A stretch of 64,000 nt of DNA from Klugiella xanthotipulae (lineage in GTDB: Bacteria > Actinomycetota > Actinomycetes > Actinomycetales > Microbacteriaceae): contig NZ_VFPN01000003.1 in assembly GCF_006716695.1 (NCBI RefSeq), positions 310,001-374,000 of the forward strand. The letters run 5' to 3'. The notes under the pieces were generated by a model. The model saw only the letters and a program-made list of their open reading frames with translations. It did no database searches and was not told the origin of the DNA. Each line of letters starts with the position of its first letter. The first letter of the stretch is position 1. The position numbers and the translations under genes are program-made. Below are positions 33,562 to 43,807 of this stretch, in pieces.

Positions 33562-33992
33562 ATGTCAGAGATAGCGCAACGCGTTCCCGTCCGGTGGTAT
33601 CGCCCACCAAGCGTTTCAAACGTTCCCCGACCAACTCTCCTCTGGCTGCACGGTGGTGGCTTCTTTCGCGGCGGCCTCGATCAGCCGGAGGCCCACGCAG
33701 TCGGCGAGGCGCTCGCGCGACAGGGGATCACCGTCGCGACGGTGGACTATCGTCTTGCGCCGCCTCCGGGGATGCCGTGGGTGAGGTCGTGGGCTGGACG
33801 CACCCGAGGAAGGTACCCACTCGCGCTGGATGATGTGCTCGACGCCCACCGGGAGGTAGGTGCTGAGTCGCCGGATGGCGTGGTCCTGGGTGGCGCAAGC
33901 GCGGGCGCATGCCTCGCTGCCGCAGCGAATCTCCGTGCGCTCGAAGAGGGGACCGGCGCCGTCGGGGCCGTCCTCGCGTACGGTTTCTTTCA
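33562..33992 (+). pseudogene. 5' half of an alpha/beta hydrolase gene interrupted by a Tn3 transposon
   Basis: This is the N-terminal part of an HSL-type esterase/acetyl-hydrolase. It has the oxyanion-hole motif HGGGFFRGG, VATVDYRLAPP and the nucleophile elbow GGASAG. The Tn3 element enters after codon 143. As it stands, the frame runs four codons into the transposon and stops at 34005. When 33562-33992 is joined to 39902-40277, the frame continues without a break to give a 268-residue hydrolase. The interrupted protein lacks the catalytic Asp and His and must be inactive. Confidence 0.88.
33988..33992. repeat. Left target-site duplication TTTCA of the Tn3 insertion
   Basis: TTTCA immediately precedes the left terminal repeat and recurs at 39897-39901 directly after the right one. 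A 5-bp duplication is the standard product of Tn3-family transposition. Confidence 0.92.
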
Positions 33993-34024
33993 GGGGTCTT
34001 GGTAGCAGCGGCGTGAAAACGAGC
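33993..34024 (+). repeat. Left terminal inverted repeat (IRL) of the Tn3 element
   Basis: 32 bp starting GGGGTCTTGGTAGCAGCG. It matches the reverse complement of 39865-39896 with a single mismatch at position 19 (G here, C in the right end). Confidence 0.93.
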
Positions 34025-34065
34025 GTTTAGCCTGGTTGGTGGGTTGTCTGGGTAGGGTGACTGTC

Positions 34066-37000
34066 ATGCCGGTGGAGTTTCTGAGTGATGAGCAGGCTGC
34101 GGCTTTCGGACGGTTCGTGGGTGATCCGTCGCGGTCGGAGCTGGAGCGCTTCTTCTTCCTTGATGACGCGGACCTGGCGCTGGTCGGGCGACACCGCGGT
34201 GAGCAGAATCGGTTGGGGTTCGCGGTGCAGTTGGGAACGGTGCGGTTCCTGGGCACGTTTCTGGTTGACCCTCTGGAGGTTCCGACGGCGGTGTTGGACT
34301 TCGTGGCTGGGCAGCTCGATGTTGTTGATCCGTCGGTGATCAAGGGGTATTCGGAGCGGGAGGCGACTGCGCGTGTGCATGCGCGGGAGATCCGCCGGGT
34401 GTATGGGTTCCGTGATCTGGGTGAGGAGCTGGCTAGCGAGCTGAGGGTGTTCGTCGAGGCGCGGGCCTGGACACACGGGGAGGGTCCTCATGCGCTGTTC
34501 GACCGGGCGACAGCCTGGCTGCGCCGACGCCGGGTGTTGTTGCCTGGGGTGACGACGTTGGTCCGGGTCGTCCAGCAGTCTCGCGAGGCCGCTCACACCC
34601 GTCTGTACGAGCATCTGGCTGATGCAGCGGACTTGGTGGACCCGTCGATGGGGTCGCGGTTGCGCGGGTTGTTGGTGGTGGGTGCTGGGGAGCGAAGTAG
34701 TGAGCTGGAGCGGCTTCGTACCTCGCCGACGCGTACGTCGGGCAAGGAGATGGACCGTGCGCTTGCGCGTGTGCAGGCGGTGCGGGCGCTGGGGGCTGGT
34801 GCGGTTGACGTCTCTGGCGTGCCGGCGTCGAGGTTGCAGGTCCTGGCCCGGTACGGGCTTAAGGCCAAGTCGCAACGGTTGCGGCGCTTGGCAGAGCCGC
34901 GACGTACTGCGACGTTGGTGGCTGCGGTGTGGTCGCTGGAGAGCCGGGCTGTGGATGACGCGCTGGACCTGTTCGATGTGCTGATCACTCGGCGGGTAGT
35001 CAATCCGTCGCGGCGGGCGGTCGCTGAGGACCGGGCCAAGCGTATGCCGGAGCTGGAGAAGGCGTCGACGGTGCTGGCGCGGGTGAGTCGGGCACTGGTC
35101 GATGTTCTGGACGCCGACGACGAGAACATCGTGCTCGACGTGGAGGCAGTGTGGGCGGCTTTGGAGCAGGTCGCTCCGCGCGAGCAGATCGCGGCTGCGG
35201 CAGCGAAGGTCGGCGAGCTGGTTCCTGCCGAGGTGGGTGAGCAGTCTGAGCTACGCGAGCAGATGTCACGTCGGTACCGCACGGTCGCGCCGTTCTTGCC
35301 GTTGCTGGGTGCGGCACTGCCCTTGCTGGCTACGGCTGAGGGCGCCGCTGTGCTGGCGGCGGCGCAGGGCTTGGGTGGGATGCGACAGCGGCGGCGGGTG
35401 CGTCGCGAGGAGGTGGATACCTCGCTGGTGTCGCCCGGGTGGCAGCGACTGGTCTTCACGGGTGAGGGCGGACAGGACGTCGACCGTGATGCGTGGGTGT
35501 TGTGCGTACTTGAGCAGCTGCGCGCGGCGCTGCGCCGCCGCGACGTGTTTGCCGAGCCGTCGGTGCGGTGGGCCGACCCGCGGGCCCAGCTCCTAGAAGG
35601 CCCACGCTGGGATGAGGTTCGCACTCAGGCGTTGACCGGTCTGGGCCTGGACATGCCGGTCGATGAGCACCTCGCCGACGTCACCGCGAGCTTGGATGCC
35701 GCCTGGCTCACGCTGGCGGACGGGCTGTCGGTCACCGGTGGCCAAGGGCCAGTTCGGGTAGAGATCGGCGAGGACGACCGGGCACGACTGTCAATGGACC
35801 GCCTCGACGCGATCGAGGTGCCCGCCTCGTTGCACGAGCTCCGTCGACGGGTCGCCGGCATGTTGCCCGAGGTCGATCTACCTGAGCTGCTGCTTGAAGT
35901 GCACGGCTGGACCGGGTTCCTGGACGCCTACACCCACCTGTCCGGCGCCGGGACCAGGGTCAAGGATCTCGCGGTGTCGGTCGCCGCGCTGCTGGTCGCC
36001 GAAGCGTGCAACGTCGGCCTGACACCGGTGGTTTCCGAGACCAGCCCCGCCCTGGGCAGGGACCGGCTCGGGCACGTCGACCAGAACTATCTGCGCAGCG
36101 AGACTCACGCGGCGGCCAACGCGATCCTGATCGAAGCGCAAGGGGCAATCCCGATCACGCGCTCCTGGGGGGATGGTCTGCTTGTCTCGGTGGACGGTCT
36201 GAGGTTCACTGTCCCGGTTCGCACGATCAACGCGGGTCCGAACCCGAAGTACTTCGGTCGTGGGCACGGCCTGACGTGGTTCAACGCGGTCAACGACCAG
36301 GTCGCCGGGGTCGGGGCCGTCGTCGTGCCCGGCACGATGCGCGACTCACTGCACGTCCTGGACACGGTGCTCAATCTGGACGGCGGCCCCAAACCCGAGA
36401 TGATCGCTTCAGATACCGCCTCCTACTCCGACATGGTCTTCGGCATCTTCCGCCTCCTGGGCTACAAGTTCTCCCCGCGCATCGCCGACGTCTCCGACGC
36501 CCGCCTGTGGCGGGCAAACCCACCGGGACGGACCCCGAGCGACTACGGTCCCCTGAACGATCTCGCTCGCAACAAGATCGACCTGGACAAGATCCGGCGC
36601 CACTGGCCGGAGATGCTTCGCGTGGCCGGCTCCCTTGTCACCGGCGCTGTGCGCGCCTACGACCTCCTGCGCATGCTCGCCCGTGACGGTCGTCCAACCC
36701 CGCTCGGGGCGGCCATCATCGAGTACGGGAGAATCGCCAAGACCGAGCATCTACTGACCATGTGCGACCCCGTCGACGAAACCCACCGGCGCAGCATCGG
36801 CCACCAACTCACCGTCCATGAGTCCCGCCACAGGCTCGTGCGAGCCATCTTCCACGGCCGCCGCGGACAGATCTACCAGCGCTACCGCGACGACCAGGAA
36901 GACCAACTCGGCGCACTCGGACTGGTCGTCAACGCCGTCGTCGTCTGGAACACCACCTACATCGACGCCGCCGTGACTGCGTTGCGTACCGAGGGACGCG

Positions 37001-37137
37001 AGATCTCCGACGCTGACCTCGCCCGACTCTCCCCGCTCGTGGACACCCACATCAACATGCTCGGCCGCTACGCCTTCACCACCCCACCCTTCAACGGGCT
37101 ACGGCCCCTACGCGGAACGGATCCGGTCACCCAGTAG
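34066..37137 (+). CDS. tnpA: Tn3-family transposase
   Basis: This is the transposase that cuts and joins the terminal repeats and generates the 5-bp target duplication. The 1023-residue length is typical of the family. Residues 1-160 form the N-terminal DNA-binding part (FLSDEQAAAFGRFVGDPSRS). The C-terminal third is the DDE nuclease: D710 in LLVSVDGLRF, D783 in MIASDTASYSDMVF and probably E919 in TVHESRH. ATG 34066 follows GGTAGGGTGA, while the frame extends to 34036. It reads towards the cargo operon, and 9 nt separate the two convergent stops. Confidence 0.95.
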   Translation: MPVEFLSDEQAAAFGRFVGDPSRSELERFFFLDDADLALVGRHRGEQNRLGFAVQLGTVRFLGTFLVDPLEVPTAVLDFVAGQLDVVDPSVIKGYSEREATARVHAREIRRVYGFRDLGEELASELRVFVEARAWTHGEGPHALFDRATAWLRRRRVLLPGVTTLVRVVQQSREAAHTRLYEHLADAADLVDPSMGSRLRGLLVVGAGERSSELERLRTSPTRTSGKEMDRALARVQAVRALGAGAVDVSGVPASRLQVLARYGLKAKSQRLRRLAEPRRTATLVAAVWSLESRAVDDALDLFDVLITRRVVNPSRRAVAEDRAKRMPELEKASTVLARVSRALVDVLDADDENIVLDVEAVWAALEQVAPREQIAAAAAKVGELVPAEVGEQSELREQMSRRYRTVAPFLPLLGAALPLLATAEGAAVLAAAQGLGGMRQRRRVRREEVDTSLVSPGWQRLVFTGEGGQDVDRDAWVLCVLEQLRAALRRRDVFAEPSVRWADPRAQLLEGPRWDEVRTQALTGLGLDMPVDEHLADVTASLDAAWLTLADGLSVTGGQGPVRVEIGEDDRARLSMDRLDAIEVPASLHELRRRVAGMLPEVDLPELLLEVHGWTGFLDAYTHLSGAGTRVKDLAVSVAALLVAEACNVGLTPVVSETSPALGRDRLGHVDQNYLRSETHAAANAILIEAQGAIPITRSWGDGLLVSVDGLRFTVPVRTINAGPNPKYFGRGHGLTWFNAVNDQVAGVGAVVVPGTMRDSLHVLDTVLNLDGGPKPEMIASDTASYSDMVFGIFRLLGYKFSPRIADVSDARLWRANPPGRTPSDYGPLNDLARNKIDLDKIRRHWPEMLRVAGSLVTGAVRAYDLLRMLARDGRPTPLGAAIIEYGRIAKTEHLLTMCDPVDETHRRSIGHQLTVHESRHRLVRAIFHGRRGQIYQRYRDDQEDQLGALGLVVNAVVVWNTTYIDAAVTALRTEGREISDADLARLSPLVDTHINMLGRYAFTTPPFNGLRPLRGTDPVTQ

Positions 37138-37146
37138 ATGCTTGAT

Positions 37147-37629
37147 CTACGACGCCGGGTCTCTACGGACTCCTTGCGGCCAAACGACTCGCACCTCAAC
37201 CCCTAGTTCGCGGGCATAGGCTACGACGTCACCGGTCCCACCTTGTCCGCGGGCAGGTTCACCGTCCCAGACGGCAACCATCAGATCAACGTTCTCGACG
37301 ATGTACCGGCCTGCCGCGTCATAGGCCTGCTCGCTAGGAGCCGGGTAAGGAAGGCGAGTTGTGTCGACCGCTGAGGCAAACAGCCCGTGGTACTCCTCCA
37401 GCTCGCGATCATTGAAGGTGGTGTCGTAATCCGTGCAAGGGACCACCACGTGCAACTGGCCTCCAGTGCGAAGAATTTCGACTGCAAACAACTGGTCGGC
37501 TCCGGCCGCGAGACAGCTGTACCCGGTCACTTCCTCGTGCGTACTGAGCACCGCTCGGATACCATCAACGATGAAGTCGAGAGCATCAGCGGGGATGTCC
37601 TGATGGCCTGTAATCCCAATACGCGTCAT
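37147..37629 (-). CDS. SLOG-like Rossmannoid protein, third gene of the TIR-caspase operon
   Basis: A 160-residue protein with the features of the SLOG (SMF/DprA-LOG) superfamily, a Rossmann-type fold that binds nucleotides and in type I Thoeris senses cyclic ADP-ribose. Visible signatures are the opening strand and turn RIGITGHQDIP, the SCLAAGADQLFAVE helix cap, and VAVWDGEPARGQGGTGDVVA, where the GxGGT turn would contact phosphate. Family membership is my reading of these motifs, and HHpred would decide it. Its ATG overlaps the caspase stop (ATGA), and GAAGGGCGG precedes it. It may sense, hydrolyse or buffer the TIR signal. Confidence 0.72.
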   Translation of the reverse strand: MTRIGITGHQDIPADALDFIVDGIRAVLSTHEEVTGYSCLAAGADQLFAVEILRTGGQLHVVVPCTDYDTTFNDRELEEYHGLFASAVDTTRLPYPAPSEQAYDAAGRYIVENVDLMVAVWDGEPARGQGGTGDVVAYARELGVEVRVVWPQGVRRDPAS

Positions 37630-38585
37630 ATCCGCCCTTCCTTGACCATATGCCAGTAGTGCTTCCCCAGCGCAGTGAGCCGACACCCTTTCGAGTTCAT
37701 TGCAGCGTAGTACAAATGATCTTCGTCAACCGGTTCGACAAGCCGGCAAGCCCGGTATTTTTGGAGACCCGCAAAGATGTCTTCATGCGCAAGATCCTCG
37801 GGTTCGGCTGTCGGCTCATACGAGGGGTCGAGAGAGTAGTCATCCTCGGGATTGGGAAACCACTCAGTTAGCTTCCGCAGAGTAGGCAATGGGACTCGGG
37901 GTTCACACTTGCGGATGTCATGCAGTCGATCAATGTTCGCCTTGAACGTTGGTCGTTGCTCCCAGGCTCCGAACGACTCCGACAGGTAAGCGTAGAGGCC
38001 TGAGACGTTCACGTGTCCGAGGACATCTGCGGCACCAGCTTCGAGTGCGCCTTCGAGGTAGGTTGAGAACATGCCTCGCCCCCCGGCCTCTGCGGATGGC
38101 TGGTCATCACGGCTTGCAGTCAACACAGTGAGCCCCTTGCGCAAGTTCGCCAGGCCATTGTTCAGGCTCTCGATAGTTCCCGCGCCCCCTGAGAAGCAGC
38201 AGTCGAGGATCACCAGAATCTCCGTATGTGGCGCACACTGGCTGATCTTGGCGAGAACTTCAGCGAACGCGACCCCAGGCGTCTGCTCAGTCGCATCCGA
38301 GGTCACCAGTGTAACGTCACCGTTGCGCGGCGAACCGTGCCCGGCGAAGTAGAAAAGAGCAAATGCGGGACCACTGGCCAGTAGTTCGTCGAGCCCGCCC
38401 AGGAGTTGGTCCCGGGTCACTGGACCATTCGCGTCTCGCGCCGCGAGGAGGCGACACTCGAGGTTCGGGCTGTCATCTTCGTTGCGAGCAAGCAAAGGAT
38501 GTAGCGAGGAGGCATCATTGACGCACCCAAAAAGCGGACCGACGTCCTGGTAGTAGTCGATTCCGACCAATAGAGCACGTTTCAT
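37626..38585 (-). CDS. Caspase-family (C14) protease, putative type IV Thoeris effector
   Basis: A 319-residue protein whose first 205 residues are a caspase-like peptidase domain. It opens with RALLVGIDYY. The catalytic dyad is His83 in FYFAGHGSP and Cys130 in VILDCCFSGG. Residues about 215-319 form a second domain with LDPSYEPT and ending NSKGCRLTALGKHYWHMVKE, probably a winged-helix-like sensor or regulatory part. In published type IV Thoeris, such a caspase is activated by a TIR-made cyclic ADP-ribose isomer and degrades cell proteins to stop phage. It overlaps the TIR gene by 4 nt upstream and the SLOG gene by 4 nt downstream. Confidence 0.88.
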   Translation of the reverse strand: MKRALLVGIDYYQDVGPLFGCVNDASSLHPLLARNEDDSPNLECRLLAARDANGPVTRDQLLGGLDELLASGPAFALFYFAGHGSPRNGDVTLVTSDATEQTPGVAFAEVLAKISQCAPHTEILVILDCCFSGGAGTIESLNNGLANLRKGLTVLTASRDDQPSAEAGGRGMFSTYLEGALEAGAADVLGHVNVSGLYAYLSESFGAWEQRPTFKANIDRLHDIRKCEPRVPLPTLRKLTEWFPNPEDDYSLDPSYEPTAEPEDLAHEDIFAGLQKYRACRLVEPVDEDHLYYAAMNSKGCRLTALGKHYWHMVKEGRI

Positions 38586-38995
38586 GCGTTCTTACCCTCA
38601 CCCATCATCTGGGTGACAGCTGCAGCGATGCCTGCCCAAGTCCAGGCGATGGTTCGGCTCCGCGCAAGCCCTGTCGGAAGCGTCGAACTTGTTCCCGCTC
38701 CACCGACGTAGACCCCGAACACGGGGACGTTGTTGGCTTTGGCCATCGCGATCTCTTTAGCGACGCCGGTAGCACTTGCCATGGACTCGCCGACCAAGAC
38801 GATGCACATGTGCGTCCTGGACATTTTTGTTTCAATAAGAGCTTCCCACTCGTTCTGCGGAAGGTCGCTCTTGCTCGACCAGTCCTCGATCGTGAATGGC
38901 GTGGGTGAATCGGTCTTCGCCTGACCGGCGAAAAGGATCTTCTCAACGGCGTTGTTGTCGAAGTCGAAGCTGACGAAAGCGCGGGGGTCGGACAT
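38582..38995 (-). CDS. TIR-like (ThsB/MTH538-type) protein, putative Thoeris signal generator
   Basis: The 137-residue product is a single TIR-like domain of the MTH538/ThsB group. The hallmark strand is AFVSFDFDNNAVEK, followed by FTIEDWSSKSDLPQNEW, the CIVLVGESMASATGVAKEI strand-helix with the probable catalytic Glu81, and NNVPVFGVYVGG. Proteins of this group in Thoeris use NAD+ to make cyclic ADP-ribose isomers on phage infection. ATG 38995 has a near-ideal GGAGG site; the open frame to 39157 runs into the res region. It is the first gene of the operon with the caspase and SLOG genes. Confidence 0.85.
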   Translation of the reverse strand: MSDPRAFVSFDFDNNAVEKILFAGQAKTDSPTPFTIEDWSSKSDLPQNEWEALIETKMSRTHMCIVLVGESMASATGVAKEIAMAKANNVPVFGVYVGGAGTSSTLPTGLARSRTIAWTWAGIAAAVTQMMGEGKNA

Positions 38996-39113
38996 GTGTT
39001 CCTCCTGCGGGTCTGTGATGGTGATCACCAACGTACAGGTATCCCCCGACATCCCACCAGTAGCCACCTGGACGTCGATGACCATCAAGGGTGCGTGATC
39101 GAACTTCGTGCGT

Positions 39114-39263
39114 CGTCTCGAAAAAGAGTAGGTTTCCGAGACGCCCGACAGGCCCACGAGCTCGACGACGAGAACCGCGAGATGCTGTCATCGGCGAATG
39201 TCTCAGAAAGTCATCTCATGGTCGCTTGTCTCCGAAAGTTGGCTGATGGAGTTTTGTGAGACG
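39114..39263. promoter_or_regulatory. Resolution (res) site region of the Tn3 element
   Basis: Repeated CGTCTC/TGTCTC half-sites lie upstream of tnpR. CGTCTCG (39114-39120) faces CGAGACG (39137-39143). TGTCTCAGAAAG starts at 39199 and TGTCTCCGAAAG at 39227, the latter facing GTGAGACG (39256-39263). Spaced inverted half-sites are what a serine resolvase binds. The region also separates tnpR from the divergent TIR operon, so both promoters probably lie in or beside it, and resolvase binding could affect cargo expression. Confidence 0.6.
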
Positions 39264-39272
39264 ATTCGGGGC

Positions 39273-39863
39273 ATGAGACTGCTGGGGTACACGCGGGTGA
39301 GCACGAACGACCAAGACGACCGACTCCAGGTCGACGCCCTCCTCGCCGCCGGGGTCGCCCGGCGCGACGTCTACGCCGACGTCACCTCGGGCGCCCGGGC
39401 CGCGACGGGCCGGCCAGGGATGAGCCGACTCCTCGAGTACGCGGGCAAGGGCGACACCGTCGTGGTGTGGCGCATCGACCGACTCGGCCGATCCCTGCTC
39501 GACGTCCTGGCCACCGTCGAGCTCATGCGCACCCGCGGGGTCGGGGTCCGCTCGATCAGCGACGGCATCGACCCCGCAACCACGAACGGCCGTCTGCTGC
39601 TCGGGATGCTGGCGACCCTGGCCGAGTACGAGCGCGAGCTCATCACCGAACGCGTCCGCGCCGGCGTCACCGCCGCCCAAGCAGCAGGCACGAAGTTCGG
39701 GCGACCACCCCTCGACCCCGACGACGTCGCAGCCAAGCTCGCCATCGTCGACCAAGCCCGCGCCGCCGGTCGCACCGTCACCGACGCCGCACGCCTCGTC
39801 GGGTGGTCACGCGCCACCTACTACCGCCACCACACCAGCAACCGACCCAACCCAACCGCCTAA
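39273..39863 (+). CDS. tnpR: Tn3-type serine resolvase
   Basis: This site-specific recombinase resolves transposition cointegrates at res. The 196-residue product has the N-terminal catalytic domain starting RLLGYTRVSTNDQ (nucleophile Ser10), WRIDRLGRSLLDV and LATLAEYERELITER, and a C-terminal helix-turn-helix (VTDAARLVGWSRATYYRH). ATG 39273 is chosen over the open frame from 39198, which lies within res. The stop codon ends one base before the right terminal repeat. Confidence 0.93.
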   Translation: MRLLGYTRVSTNDQDDRLQVDALLAAGVARRDVYADVTSGARAATGRPGMSRLLEYAGKGDTVVVWRIDRLGRSLLDVLATVELMRTRGVGVRSISDGIDPATTNGRLLLGMLATLAEYERELITERVRAGVTAAQAAGTKFGRPPLDPDDVAAKLAIVDQARAAGRTVTDAARLVGWSRATYYRHHTSNRPNPTA

Positions 39864-39864
39864 G

Positions 39865-39896
39865 GCTCGTTTTCACGGCGCTGCTACCAAGACCCC
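39865..39896 (-). repeat. Right terminal inverted repeat (IRR) of the Tn3 element
   Basis: 32 bp ending ACCAAGACCCC on the plus strand, inverted relative to 33993-34024 with one mismatch. Confidence 0.93.
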
Positions 39897-39901
39897 TTTC
39901 A
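39897..39901. repeat. Right target-site duplication TTTCA
   Basis: Identical to 33988-33992 and directly outside the right terminal repeat. Confidence 0.92.
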
Positions 39902-40277
39902 CGGACGGCACCCCCGAACCAGCGATGGTCTAGGCCGATCCCGGGGCCACCGCCGCATCACCCATGCACCGCTGGCGCTCGACGCCGCGAATCACAACTA
40001 CGTCGGTTCACGACTCGGGCTCGATGACCGACTTGGGTTCCCCGGCGGTCACGACATTTACGGCTTCCCCAGCACCCTTGTCATCAATGCAGAGCACGAT
40101 AACATGCGCGCCTCCGGCGACCTCTTCGCCGCCGAGCTGATCCGCTCCGGTGTCGATGTGCAGCACCACGTACTCCCGGGAACACATCATGCATTCCTGA
40201 ACCGTCCTGAGCGAGAAGCGTTGACGACCGCGACCACGCTAATTGCAGCGTGGATGCGAGCCGTGATGGAACACTGA
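39902..40277 (+). pseudogene. 3' half of the interrupted alpha/beta hydrolase gene
   Basis: Read in the phase left by codon 143 of the 5' half, this segment stays open to TGA at 40275-40277. It supplies the missing catalytic acid in STLVINAEHDNMR and the catalytic histidine in LPGTHHAFLN, both at the positions expected for an HSL-type esterase. It also carries the C-terminal helix TLIAAWMRAVMEH. It has no start of its own and is not expected to be translated. Confidence 0.85.
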
Positions 40278-40807: not shown

Positions 40808-41041
40808 ATGAGTATCGAACACGAAGAACCCGGCCACGGAGACTCACCCGCAGCATGGACCGCGGTTGTCCTGATGCTGATTGGAATGGCTGCCGGTACG
40901 GTTGCATTCTTTATGCATCAGCCGATGATCGTCTTGGCATGCGCTGGCCTGGTTGTTGTGGGTCCACTGGTGGGCTTCATCATGTCCAAAGCTGGATACG
41001 GTGTCAACGGCCCCAAGTACGTCGCTAAGGCACATAACTAA
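40808..41041 (+). CDS. HG-motif small membrane protein of the trp operon (DUF6704-like)
   Basis: A 77-residue protein that in actinobacteria normally sits between the Trp membrane protein and trpC. It has the characteristic HGDSPAAWTAV motif at residues 9-19, two membrane helices (about 17-36 and 40-60) and a polar C-terminus GYGVNGPKYVAK. TAGGAG gives a good ribosome site. Function is unknown. Here it follows the island instead of its usual neighbour. Confidence 0.82.
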   Translation: MSIEHEEPGHGDSPAAWTAVVLMLIGMAAGTVAFFMHQPMIVLACAGLVVVGPLVGFIMSKAGYGVNGPKYVAKAHN

Positions 41042-41042
41042 A

Positions 41043-41813
41043 GTGCTGAATTCCTTATTGGCAGGCTCGTTAGAAGACGCGGCCGCTCGCCGTGCGCAGC
41101 GCCCCCTCAGTATCGTTGAGGCCGCTGCGCACGAGCAGGCTCCAGCTCTTGATGCTCTTGCGTTCCTACAGCCCGGGGAGAGAGTCAAGATTATTGCCGA
41201 GGTCAAGCGGGCGAGTCCATCCCGTGGTGCCCTTGCCGATATCCCGGATCCGGCTGCGCTTGCCGCCCTGTACGAAGACGGCGGGGCGAGCGCCGTAAGC
41301 GTTCTCACGGAACAACGCAAGTTCGGTGGATCACTGGCCGACCTGGAGGCCGTTCGCCAAGCGATCAGCCTCCCTGTGCTACGCAAAGACTTTATCGCCG
41401 ATCCCTATCAGGTATTTGAAGCGCGTGCCGCGGGGGCAGATATGGTTCTCCTCATCGTCGCGGCGCTTGAACAGCCCCTCTTGCAGGAGCTATACGCTCT
41501 TATCCGGGAGCTCGGCATGGCTGCACTCGTTGAGACTCACGATGCTGACGAGGTCTCGCGTGCGCTCGATATCGGCGCCAGCATCGTGGGCGTTAACGCT
41601 CGAAACCTCTCCACCTTCGAGCTGGACCGGGATCTCTTTGGCCGCATCGCCGATCAGATTCCCTCGGGTGTAGTACGGGTAGCCGAGTCTGCTGTGCACT
41701 CAGCCGACGATGTAGCTCATTACCGTCGCGATGGCGCGGATGCCGTTTTGGTCGGCGAAGCACTGGTGACTGGTGATCCCTTGGCGACCCTGGCCCATTT
41801 TTTGGCGGTATAG
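41043..41813 (+). CDS. trpC: Indole-3-glycerol phosphate synthase
   Basis: This TIM-barrel enzyme converts CdRP to indole-3-glycerol phosphate in tryptophan synthesis. The 256-residue product has KIIAEVKRASPSRG, VLTEQRKFGGS, VLRKDFIADPYQVFEARAAG, VGVNARNL and VAESAV, the conserved barrel loops with the catalytic lysines and glutamates. It is not fused to TrpF. The GTG start is one base after the preceding stop. The open frame reaching back into that gene is ignored. Confidence 0.95.
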   Translation: MLNSLLAGSLEDAAARRAQRPLSIVEAAAHEQAPALDALAFLQPGERVKIIAEVKRASPSRGALADIPDPAALAALYEDGGASAVSVLTEQRKFGGSLADLEAVRQAISLPVLRKDFIADPYQVFEARAAGADMVLLIVAALEQPLLQELYALIRELGMAALVETHDADEVSRALDIGASIVGVNARNLSTFELDRDLFGRIADQIPSGVVRVAESAVHSADDVAHYRRDGADAVLVGEALVTGDPLATLAHFLAV

Positions 41814-41816
41814 CAC

Positions 41817-43025
41817 ATGAGCTTAAGAGATGAAGAGGGGCCCTACTTCGGTGATTTCGGTGGACGATTTGTTCCCGAGTCGCTCGTGGCCGCCTTGGAT
41901 GAATTGAGTGCTGCCTACACGGAAGCTCGGAAAGATCCGGCATTTGCTTCCGAACTTACTGAGTTACACCGAACCTATACGGGTCGCCCCTCAATTATTA
42001 CCGAGGTTCCTCGGTTTGCCGAGCACGCTGGTGGTGCTCGTATCATCCTCAAACGCGAGGATCTCAACCACACGGGTTCCCATAAAATCAATAACGTTCT
42101 CGGCCAAGCGCTGCTGACGCGGCGTATTGGCAAGACGCGGGTAATTGCTGAAACCGGCGCTGGCCAGCACGGTGTTGCTACGGCCACCGCTGCTGCGCTC
42201 TTCGGCCTGGACTGCGTGGTGTACATGGGGGAGGTTGACACCGAACGCCAGGCTCTCAACGTGGCCCGGATGCGCCTCCTGGGTGCCGAGGTGATCCCCG
42301 TCACAGCCGGTTCGCGCACCCTCAAGGACGCGATTAATGAGGCTATGCGTGACTGGGTGACCAACGTCGAGCACACCAACTACATTTTTGGCACTGTTGC
42401 CGGTCCACACCCTTTCCCCGCGATGGTTCGCGATTTTCAGAAAATCATCGGAGAAGAAGCTCGCGCACAGGTTCTGAGCTTGACGGGTGAGCTGCCGGAT
42501 GTTGTTGCCGCATGTGTCGGCGGTGGATCCAACGCCATCGGAATCTTCCACGCTTTTCTTGACGACCCCTCTGTCGCTTTATACGGATTCGAGGCGGCGG
42601 GCGAAGGAATTGATACACCGAGGCACTCGGCCACCATCGGGATGGGTCGCCCGGGCGTTTTACACGGTGCTCGCAGCCTGATGCTTCAGGACGAAGACGG
42701 TCAGACACGTGACTCTCACTCAATCTCAGCTGGCTTAGACTACCCGGGTGTTGGCCCGGAGCACGCCTGGCTGGCTGATATTCACCGCGCCACCTATCGA
42801 AGCGTCACCGATGCGGAGGCCATGCACGCTCTCCGCCTGCTCTCACGAACTGAGGGCATTATCCCCGCTATTGAGTCGGCTCATGCCCTCGCGGGCGCGC
42901 TCACACTGGGCCGCGAGCGTGGGCCAGAGAGCACGATTCTGGTCAGCCTCAGCGGCCGGGGCGATAAAGATATGGAAACCGCTGCGGCCTACTTCGACCT
43001 TCTAGATGGAGAAATTGCCCCGTGA
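41817..43025 (+). CDS. trpB: Tryptophan synthase beta chain
   Basis: This PLP enzyme joins indole and serine to form tryptophan, in complex with TrpA. The 402-residue product has the PLP lysine in the motif [17 protein letters not shown] for substrate binding and GGGSNAIG for the PLP phosphate. The N-terminus [12 protein letters not shown] is typical. ATG 41817 is 3 nt after trpC, and the end overlaps trpA by 4 nt. Confidence 0.97.
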
Positions 43026-43807
43026 GCTCAGCAGTAGAACAAGTCATTCGCACACGACGGGATGCTGGTTCGGGTGCGCTCATCGGCTACCTGCCCGTGG
43101 GTTTCCCCTCGCTCGAGGTGAGCATTGACGCCGCCTGCGCTATCGTCGAGAATGGCGTCGATATCCTTGAACTTGGTTTGCCGTACTCTGACCCCGTGAT
43201 GGATGGCCCCGTTATTCAAGCTGCTACCGTGCGCGCCCGTGAGAACGGTTTCCGACTCAGGGACGGGTTTACCGCCGTTCGCGAAATCCAGCAACGTGTT
43301 GATGCCCCCGTCTTGGTGATGACCTACTGGAACCCCGTCATGCAATACGGTGTTGGGCGTTTCGCCGACGACCTCCTCGCTGCGGGTGGAGCCGGGCTGA
43401 TCACGCCTGACCTTATTCCTGACGAGGGTGCCGAGTGGCTGGCCGAATCGGACCGTACCGGTCTCGACCGTGTTTTTCTAGCCGCGCCCTCCTCAACGGA
43501 TGAACGTCTGCGACAAGCTGTGGCGTCAAGTCGCGGCTTTGTGTATACGGTTTCGACAATGGGGGTCACCGGCACACGAAACGATATTGACGACGCCGCC
43601 CAGAAACTCGTGAGTCGGCTCCGGAATGTAGGAGCCGAATATGCGTGTGTTGGTCTCGGGATTTCTACGGGGCAGCACGTTTCCGAAATCCTCAGCTACG
43701 CTGACGGCGCGATTGTGGGCTCGGCCCTGGTTCGCGCTCTTGCAGACGGGGGAGTGAGCGCGGTTGCCGACGTGGCAGCCTCGCTTGCAGCCGGTGCCTC
43801 GGTCTAG
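43022..43807 (+). CDS. trpA: Tryptophan synthase alpha chain
   Basis: This subunit cleaves indole-3-glycerol phosphate and channels indole to TrpB. The 261-residue barrel has [11 protein letters not shown], the catalytic Glu in [16 protein letters not shown] and the catalytic Asp in [12 protein letters not shown], plus VSTMGVTG and the phosphate-binding GSALV. The GTG start overlaps the trpB stop as GTGA. Confidence 0.96.

What the first reader, a model, noticed from the sequence alone, without database searches (positions are those of the whole stretch)
37147..38995. TIR-like, caspase and SLOG-like genes form one overlapping operon: a candidate Thoeris-type defence system with a third component
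Seen: three minus-strand genes joined by two ATGA overlaps. Gene 1 is a 137-residue TIR-like protein of the ThsB/MTH538 type, with a strong GGAGG site. Gene 2 is a caspase-family protease with an intact His83/Cys130 dyad and a C-terminal extra domain. Gene 3 is a SLOG-like protein. Established: type IV Thoeris couples a TIR protein that makes a cyclic ADP-ribose isomer to a caspase-like protease, and type I Thoeris uses a SLOG domain to sense such a molecule. Inference: this is an abortive-infection system in which phage sensing by the TIR protein activates the caspase. The separate SLOG gene may make it a distinct subtype.
Basis: partly seen in the sequence, partly recalled or inferred. Interest (0 to 1): 0.93.

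Follow-up and report, generated by a model that had tools for sequence, protein, structure and literature searches.

The report
TIR-caspase-SLOG defence operon on transposon
Three overlapping genes riding on a jumping DNA element look like a bacterial self-destruct defence against viruses, in which a signal-making protein switches on a protein-cutting enzyme, with a third, conserved partner protein whose job is not yet known.

Summary
Three minus-strand genes at 37147-38995 overlap by ATGA: a 137-aa ThsB-type TIR protein, a 319-aa caspase-family protease (His83/Cys130 in 106 of 106 relatives) and a 160-aa protein with a predicted SLOG fold of YpsA/DprA type.

The TIR-caspase pair has the composition of type IV Thoeris; biochemistry is untestable here and the founding paper is not held. 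The third gene is real: SLOG sits near 20 of 106 caspases, clustered on the caspase tree (6 changes versus 18.7 shuffled), in several phyla; in 18 of the 20 it directly follows the caspase. Caspase-SLOG persists while the TIR changes; in five Frankia-type loci a CATRA protein replaces it. One locus has TIR + 8xMP + SLOG. G-H-Q marks 27 of 27 SLOGs linked to caspase or TIR-8xMP and 0 of 40 others, though this reflects only 1-3 evolutionary changes.

Verdict: a SLOG-containing variant of TIR-caspase (type IV Thoeris-like) immunity. SLOG most likely is a nucleotide-binding regulator on the caspase side; a signal eraser is the main rival.

The parts
38582..38995 (-). TIR protein (ThsB_TIR, 137 aa), presumed NAD+-consuming signal maker; Glu81 conserved
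37626..38585 (-). caspase-family protease (319 aa), His83/Cys130, with a C-terminal part beyond the caspase domain that is conserved in relatives
37147..37629 (-). SLOG-fold protein (160 aa), G-H-Q motif (Gln10) and GGTxD motif
33993..39896 (.). Tn3-family transposon, 5,904 bp, that carries the operon
33993..34030 (+). left 38-bp terminal inverted repeat (4 mismatches to the right one)
39859..39896 (-). right 38-bp terminal inverted repeat
33988..33992 (.). target-site duplication TTTCA, left copy
39897..39901 (.). target-site duplication TTTCA, right copy
34036..37137 (+). Tn3 transposase (1033 aa; NCBIfam transpos_Tn3 5e-284)
39198..39863 (+). serine resolvase (221 aa)
33562..40277 (+). alpha/beta-hydrolase gene interrupted by the transposon; without insert and one duplication it reads as 268 codons

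Best explanation
A mobile anti-phage operon of the type IV Thoeris kind with a third subunit. On infection the TIR protein converts NAD+ into a small ADP-ribose-type signal (inferred). The signal turns on the caspase, which degrades cell proteins and stops phage growth by killing or arresting the cell (inferred from the family). The SLOG protein, whose gene overlaps that of the caspase, belongs to the effector side: most likely it binds the nucleotide signal or a related nucleotide and gates caspase activity, as co-receptor or as safety catch. Shown here: the three genes, the predicted folds of two of them, their linkage in distant bacteria, stability of the caspase-SLOG unit while its partner changes, and carriage on a Tn3-family transposon. 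Inferred: the signal, its receptor, the proteolysis and the SLOG role. Component confidence: TIR-caspase defence module 0.85; SLOG a genuine third component 0.85; effector-side nucleotide-binding role 0.45.
For: ThsB-type TIR hits lie within 3 kb of 93 of 106 full-length caspase relatives. SLOG is within 5 kb of 20 of 106; its label needs 6 changes on the caspase tree against a mean of 18.7 for shuffled labels, 0 of 500 as low. In 18 of these 20 (the window included) the SLOG frame opens between 31 bases before and 0 bases after the caspase stop; in 12 its first possible start gives the 4-base overlap, one of these (L035) in a longer frame whose SLOG part begins some 650 bases on. In 395 other genomes of the window's phylum, 3 have both, adjacent, against 6 with a full-length caspase and 8 with a SLOG match at E below 1e-20 (own tally): P 1e-4; with other cut-offs (5-7 and 8-13) 5e-5 to 9e-4. 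Caspase-SLOG is kept while TIR changes: L027 caspase 63% and TIR 27% identical to the window's, L028 60% and 68%. In five loci a CATRA protein stands before caspase-SLOG: L031 and L036 by Pfam (CATRA-N, CATRA-C, EAD1), L034 as their homologue, L260 and L262 by a local profile. G-H-Q marks 27 of 27 linked SLOGs and 0 of 40 others. Passages of PMC12847820 report that N7-cADPR activates a caspase-like protease in type IV Thoeris.
Against: 86 of 106 caspases have no SLOG nearby, so SLOG is not needed by TIR-caspase systems in general. SLOG also occurs beside 8xMP instead of caspase (L164 with TIR; L165 without, and with G-H-I, counted as not linked), so it is not exclusively a caspase partner. The G-H-Q pattern rests on 3 changes, only 1 independent pair on well-supported branches, so it is no statistical proof; ten G-H-R SLOGs without caspase nest inside the G-H-Q rows. 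No complex was modelled and no ligand pocket was tested. One member of the window's caspase clade (L037) lacks SLOG. SLOGs of the same family without caspase or TIR exist on Streptomyces plasmids and in viral contigs, so the fold alone does not imply immunity. EAD1-type input in Frankia, if real, might need no nucleotide signal.
Confidence: 0.5

Rival explanations
1. The SLOG protein is an eraser or sponge for the TIR-made signal: it binds or cleaves the cyclic ADPR isomer so that leaky TIR activity does not fire the caspase.
For: In some other TIR-caspase operons the slot after the caspase holds a small RyR-domain-like protein (L003, L021, L025: E 9e-5 to 2e-3, below cut-off; L065 0.13); phage RyR-domain proteins cleave or sequester 2' and 3'cADPR (abstract and passages of PMC13232231). 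N7-cADPR is cyclised by an N-glycosidic bond (passage of PMC12856790), the bond class that LOG relatives of SLOG cleave (recalled).
Against: SLOG follows the caspase lineage rather than the TIR type and persists in five loci without ThsB TIR beside it. The LOG catalytic motif PGGxGTxxE (recalled, compared by eye) is not kept: Val135 stands where its Glu would be.
Confidence: 0.27
2. SLOG is an enzyme in signal synthesis: it converts the TIR product, or makes a second signal, that the caspase needs.
For: TIR, deoxyribohydrolase and SLOG folds have been proposed as makers of nucleotide signals in conflict systems (passages of PMC7159879). Caspase-SLOG occurs without an adjacent ThsB TIR. Asp134 in the GGTxD motif is invariant in a 17-row alignment.
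Against: Most relatives of this caspase have no SLOG, among them 25 SLOG-free loci with the window's TIR type. The one catalytic motif compared, that of LOG, is not met.
Confidence: 0.12
3. The SLOG gene is a passenger: a separate nucleotide-binding regulator or unrelated gene that is co-transcribed but plays no part in the defence.
For: Related SLOG proteins stand beside unrelated genes on Streptomyces plasmids.
Against: Linkage over several phyla, directly downstream in 18 of 20, clustering on the caspase tree and the shared G-H-Q motif.
Confidence: 0.1
4. The system is not an anti-phage defence but a stabilising or addiction module for the transposon, or a general stress-triggered death programme.
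For: It is cargo of a Tn3-family transposon. Related pairs sit beside Tn3 transposase and resolvase on a Providencia plasmid (L026), after Tn7-like genes in Proteus (L019) and on several conjugative plasmids.
Against: Type IV Thoeris members of this composition are reported to prevent phage replication (passage). Mobile carriage is common for defence systems (general knowledge).
Confidence: 0.1

Closest known systems
Type IV Thoeris (TIR plus caspase-like protease; Rousset et al. 2025, paper not held, known here from passages of citing papers)
   Same: A TIR gene beside a caspase-like protease gene in one operon; conserved His/Cys dyad and TIR glutamate.
   Different: A third, overlapping SLOG gene. 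Signal, activation and direct similarity to the tested proteins could not be checked.
Type I Thoeris (ThsB TIR plus ThsA SIR2-SLOG)
   Same: A ThsB-family TIR and a SLOG fold in the same system.
   Different: No SIR2; SLOG is a separate 160-aa protein nearest to YpsA/ShosA/DprA, only distantly like ThsA SLOG (TM 0.46); the effector is a caspase.
EACC1-caspase two-gene conflict system (Kaur et al. 2020, passages read)
   Same: Caspase domain related to NCBIfam NF047832 (2.6e-22, below its cut-off).
   Different: No EACC1 gene beside it; neighbours are TIR and SLOG.
YpsA / ShosA / DprA SLOG proteins
   Same: Fold of gene 3 (Foldseek 4.9e-9, 5.9e-7, 1.6e-5).
   Different: Sequence identity only 13-19% in these three matches; different operon context.
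Tn3-family transposons
   Same: Transposase, resolvase, 38-bp inverted repeats, 5-bp target duplication.
   Different: Cargo is a defence-type operon; of 30 plasmid records matched by megablast none holds 80% of the element.

Membership tests
Type IV Thoeris | TIR-domain gene of ThsB kind with conserved Glu | tested here: met
   Pfam ThsB_TIR above cut-off; Glu81 in 115 of 119 rows, 4 gaps
Type IV Thoeris | Adjacent caspase-like protease with intact His/Cys dyad | tested here: met
   Pfam C14 above cut-off; model matches caspase folds; dyad 106 of 106
Type IV Thoeris | Sequence relationship to the experimentally tested TIR and caspase | not tested
Type IV Thoeris | TIR makes N7-cADPR, which activates the caspase | not testable with these tools
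   needs biochemistry
Type IV Thoeris | Protects against phage by protein degradation | not testable with these tools
   needs phage challenge
Type I Thoeris | ThsA effector with SIR2 fused to SLOG | tested here: not met
   no SIR2 match in the three proteins; SLOG is a separate gene
EACC1-caspase system | EACC1 gene beside the caspase and NF047832 above cut-off | tested here: not met
   79.4 bits against cut-off 140; no EACC1 match among the six window proteins scanned
LOG phosphoribohydrolase | PGGxGTxxE catalytic motif (recalled) | tested here: not met
   gene 3 reads GQGGTGDVV; by eye the Glu position is Val135
SLOG superfamily | SLOG fold | tested here: met
   predicted model: 23 PDB matches with E up to 0.001, led by YpsA, ShosA, DprA; by sequence alone no match above cut-off
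Tn3-family transposon | Tn3 transposase, resolvase, terminal inverted repeats, 5-bp duplication | tested here: met

The most novel reading that the evidence does not exclude
Caspase plus SLOG is a two-protein, nucleotide-gated effector cassette in which a separate SLOG subunit reads (or erases) the signal for the caspase. It is portable between inputs: ThsB TIRs of several kinds, or a CATRA-EAD1 protein in Frankia-type bacteria; and the G-H-Q SLOG can also pair with an 8xMP membrane effector. TIR immunity would then use exchangeable signal-handling subunits, SLOG in some caspase lineages and RyR-domain proteins in others.
Probability: 0.35. Interest if true: 0.78.

Novelty: new variant of a known kind. 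Interest (0 to 1): 0.6.

Why it matters
TIR-caspase signalling in bacteria is a recent finding that links two pillars of animal cell death. A conserved extra subunit that could read, gate or erase the nucleotide signal would answer how such lethal proteases are kept safe and made specific, and gives a directly testable gene and residue (Gln10). The exchange of TIR, effector and accessory genes shows how these immune pathways are assembled from parts, and the Tn3 carriage shows one way in which they spread.

Tried and rejected
Rejected: (1) chance overlap of open frames: all three have family or fold support and conserved neighbours. (2) A ThsA-type SLOG sensor: fold match is weak. (3) EACC1-caspase system: profile below cut-off, no EACC1. 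(4) LOG enzyme: motif not kept. (5) SLOG as partner of one TIR type: SLOG-positive loci have the window's TIR type in 6, other TIRs in 9 and no TIR hit in 5 of 20. (6) G-H-Q as statistical proof: of 29 further loci, 7 G-H-Q were all beside a caspase and 22 G-H-R were not, but three of the 7 and two of the 22 proved to be loci already seen, leaving 4 of 4 against 0 of 20 (Fisher 9e-5), and the tree supports only 1-3 changes. The pooled Fisher value printed ignores relatedness, and I do not rely on it.

Rows dropped: from the caspase set, skipped copies of loci already held (L001, L004, L005, L008, L009, L162), L002 (its caspase is not full length), and duplicates L194-L196. From the 67-row SLOG set, copies, incomplete matches and matches scoring 90 or less, among them L016 (G-H-P) and L167 (G-H-S), which have no caspase. 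Close kin were kept (L024 with L204; L158, L160, L163).

Led nowhere: promoter and terminator scan (0 promoter-like, 0.4 expected; 2 terminator-like, 2.1 expected); phage records (2 matches); papers on type III Thoeris (none) and 8xMP (6 listed, unrelated by title); caspase columns that differ between SLOG-positive and SLOG-negative loci (for example 221, 222, 227, 103, 149), which relatedness could explain; empty-site search in relatives (11 of 40 genomes match, the window's own included; the longest other match is 361 bases at 72% in G004; not followed).

Full report
WHAT IS THERE. The window is bases 310001-374000 of contig C3 of a 2.98-Mb genome. The tool names no organism; a genome of the same class (G807) holds the same stretch as Frankia locus L031, so the host is an actinomycete. 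Three minus-strand genes lie at 38995-38582, 38585-37626 and 37629-37147, joined by two ATGA overlaps; the first has AGGAGG five bases before its ATG. Gene 1 is a ThsB_TIR protein (29.9 bits, cut-off 21.2). Gene 2 is a caspase-family protein (Peptidase_C14 40.8 bits, cut-off 21.4). Gene 3 has no Pfam or NCBIfam match above a cut-off; its best Pfam line is an EF-P domain (0.0069), then YpsA SLOG (0.075).

FOLDS. From a 32-row alignment the caspase model has mean pLDDT 92.8 and matches MALT1 paracaspase, caspases, metacaspases and the bacterial protein GSU0716. From a 17-row alignment the gene 3 model has mean pLDDT 94.3; best PDB matches are YpsA (E 4.9e-9, TM 0.74), ShosA (5.9e-7) and DprA (1.6e-5), and the ThsA SLOG with 3'cADPR is rank 17 (2.6e-4, TM 0.46). 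So gene 3 is a SLOG fold, but not closest to the Thoeris sensor. The TIR was not folded.

THE CARRIER. A 36-base inverted repeat pair flanks the region. Read exactly, the element runs from 33993 to 39896, 5,904 bases, with 38-base ends that differ at 4 places, TTTCA on both sides, a Tn3 transposase (5e-284) and a serine resolvase. Leaving out the element and one TTTCA gives a 268-codon alpha/beta-hydrolase frame. The left, transposase-bearing 3,149 bases occur once in the genome; the only other match is the element's own right end. Related TIR-caspase pairs ride on other mobile DNA: beside Tn3 transposase and resolvase in Providencia (L026), after Tn7-like genes in Proteus (L019), and on other plasmids.

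RELATIVES. With viral contigs, some of the plasmid hits and searched genomes I had 109 full-length loci, 106 after dropping three duplicates. His83 and Cys130 are kept in 106 of 106. ThsB-type TIR hits (E up to 1e-3) lie within 3 kb of 93 of 106. TIR identity to gene 1 falls in two bands, 57-73% and 15-34%. The first band occurs with SLOG-positive and SLOG-negative caspases and also beside 8xMP membrane proteins (L164, 66%; second TIR of L025, 73%).

THE THIRD GENE. SLOG lies within 5 kb of 20 of the 106 caspases. The label needs 6 changes on the tree against 18.7 for shuffled labels (0 of 500 as low); well-supported branches force at least 3. The window's clade holds 12 SLOG-positive rows of 13 (support 98); the exception is L037. 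Other SLOG-positive rows are from Armatimonadota (L038), two further genomes of the window's phylum (L168, L171), Agrobacterium and Rhizobium plasmids (L023, L024) and Bacillus plasmid pBS72 (L020); a separate pair (L022, L116) has SLOG upstream or on the other strand about 4 kb away. In 18 of the 20 SLOG directly follows the caspase, 12 with a first possible start that gives the 4-base overlap (and the window); in L035 that frame is long and its SLOG part begins some 650 bases on. In the phylum draw of 396 genomes, 14 have a SLOG match and 24 a caspase match, of which few are full-length relatives. My tally of 8 SLOG genomes (E below 1e-20) and 6 with full-length caspase (one of them split in two frames), 3 in common besides the window's genome, gives P 1e-4; other cut-offs give 5e-5 to 9e-4.

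EXCHANGE OF PARTNERS. Caspase-SLOG stays together while TIR changes: L027 caspase 63% and TIR 27%; L028 and L029 about 60% and 67%, with TIR on the opposite strand. Frankia-type loci L031 and L036 have a CATRA-N/CATRA-C/EAD1 protein before caspase-SLOG (Pfam); L034 has its homologue, and L260 and L262 match a local profile of the three (EAD1 was not checked apart in these). Four genomes of caspase-SLOG loci without TIR nearby (L031, L034, L035, L036) had no match to gene 1 anywhere; very distant TIRs would be missed, and the genomes of L260, L262 and L213 were not searched. In Novosphingobium (L164) the order is TIR, 8xMP, SLOG.

A MARKER RESIDUE. SLOGs beside caspase, or beside TIR-8xMP, read G-H-Q after the first strand; others read G-H-R, M, S, T, I or L. 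I saw this in the first set and tested it on 29 further loci of a 394-genome search, the best-scoring ones fetched out of 86 genomes with matches: 7 G-H-Q, all beside a caspase, and 22 G-H-R, none. Five of these were loci already seen, leaving 4 of 4 and 0 of 20. Over 67 SLOGs after dropping copies, fragments and weak matches, 27 of 27 against 0 of 40. An 8xMP-SLOG pair without TIR (L165, G-H-I) is counted among the 40. The tree needs only 3 changes, with only 1 independent pair on well-supported branches, so this is a perfect marker in this set but weak proof of function. Ten G-H-R rows without caspase form a clade inside the G-H-Q rows, as if the linkage and the Gln had been lost together. 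The searched genome loci had about 1.5 kb of flank, so a more distant caspase would be missed.

OTHER THIRD GENES. SLOG-free TIR-caspase loci can have something else after the caspase: a second TIR, DUF6338 membrane proteins, or a small RyR-domain-like protein (L003, L021, L025; L065 and L174 by a local profile). The three RyR-like proteins aligned keep an H-x-x-W pair; His75 and Trp78, spaced alike, bind the ligand in the phage enzyme RyDEP, whose relatives cleave or sequester cADPR signals (passages of PMC13232231). This is the main ground for the eraser rival.

INTERPRETATION. The core matches type IV Thoeris, reported as a TIR whose product N7-cADPR activates a caspase-like protease (passages of PMC12847820; type IV Thoeris is also named in PMC13373217). 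The founding paper and a 2026 paper on a phage sponge against TIR-caspase signalling were not held, so I cannot say whether a SLOG component is described there. In the library, ten searches (one search listed 20 of 40 papers and one search listed 20 of 209) showed no listing, and I read no passage, that describes a TIR-caspase-SLOG operon; I read only an outline and passages of six papers. Because SLOG follows the caspase lineage and survives loss of the adjacent TIR, I favour an effector-side, nucleotide-binding regulator; an eraser or sponge is second.

Noticed in passing
33988-39901: Tn3-family transposon with TTTCA duplications splits an alpha/beta-hydrolase gene; its defence-type cargo was the given finding.
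   Followed up: yes
L031, L034, L036, L260, L262: Frankia-type loci with a CATRA protein (EAD1 shown by Pfam in L031 and L036), caspase and SLOG, without a ThsB TIR beside them.
   Followed up: partly
L164:3999-5471, L165:4389-5483, L025:6708-7585: TIR + 8xMP + SLOG (Novosphingobium plasmid), 8xMP + SLOG without TIR (Streptomyces plasmid), TIR + 8xMP (Paenarthrobacter plasmid): possible membrane-effector Thoeris-like operons.
   Followed up: partly
L003, L021, L025, L065 after the caspase gene: Small RyR-domain-like third gene in other TIR-caspase operons, the same family as phage enzymes that cleave cADPR signals.
   Followed up: partly
L028:5359-5871, L029:7426-7929: TIR gene convergent to the caspase-SLOG operon on the opposite strand.
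   Followed up: no
L158-L161, L163, L166, L201: Related SLOG proteins with G-H-R in viral contigs and on Streptomyces plasmids, without TIR or caspase in the stretch held; in L166 beside a protein with a helix-turn-helix match.
   Followed up: no
L002:1501-2442: TIR-caspase-SLOG operon in a same-family genome whose caspase match holds one in-frame TAA stop.
   Followed up: no
40953-43807: Frames downstream of the insertion look by eye like tryptophan biosynthesis genes (trpC, trpB, perhaps trpA), so the site lies near housekeeping genes.
   Followed up: no
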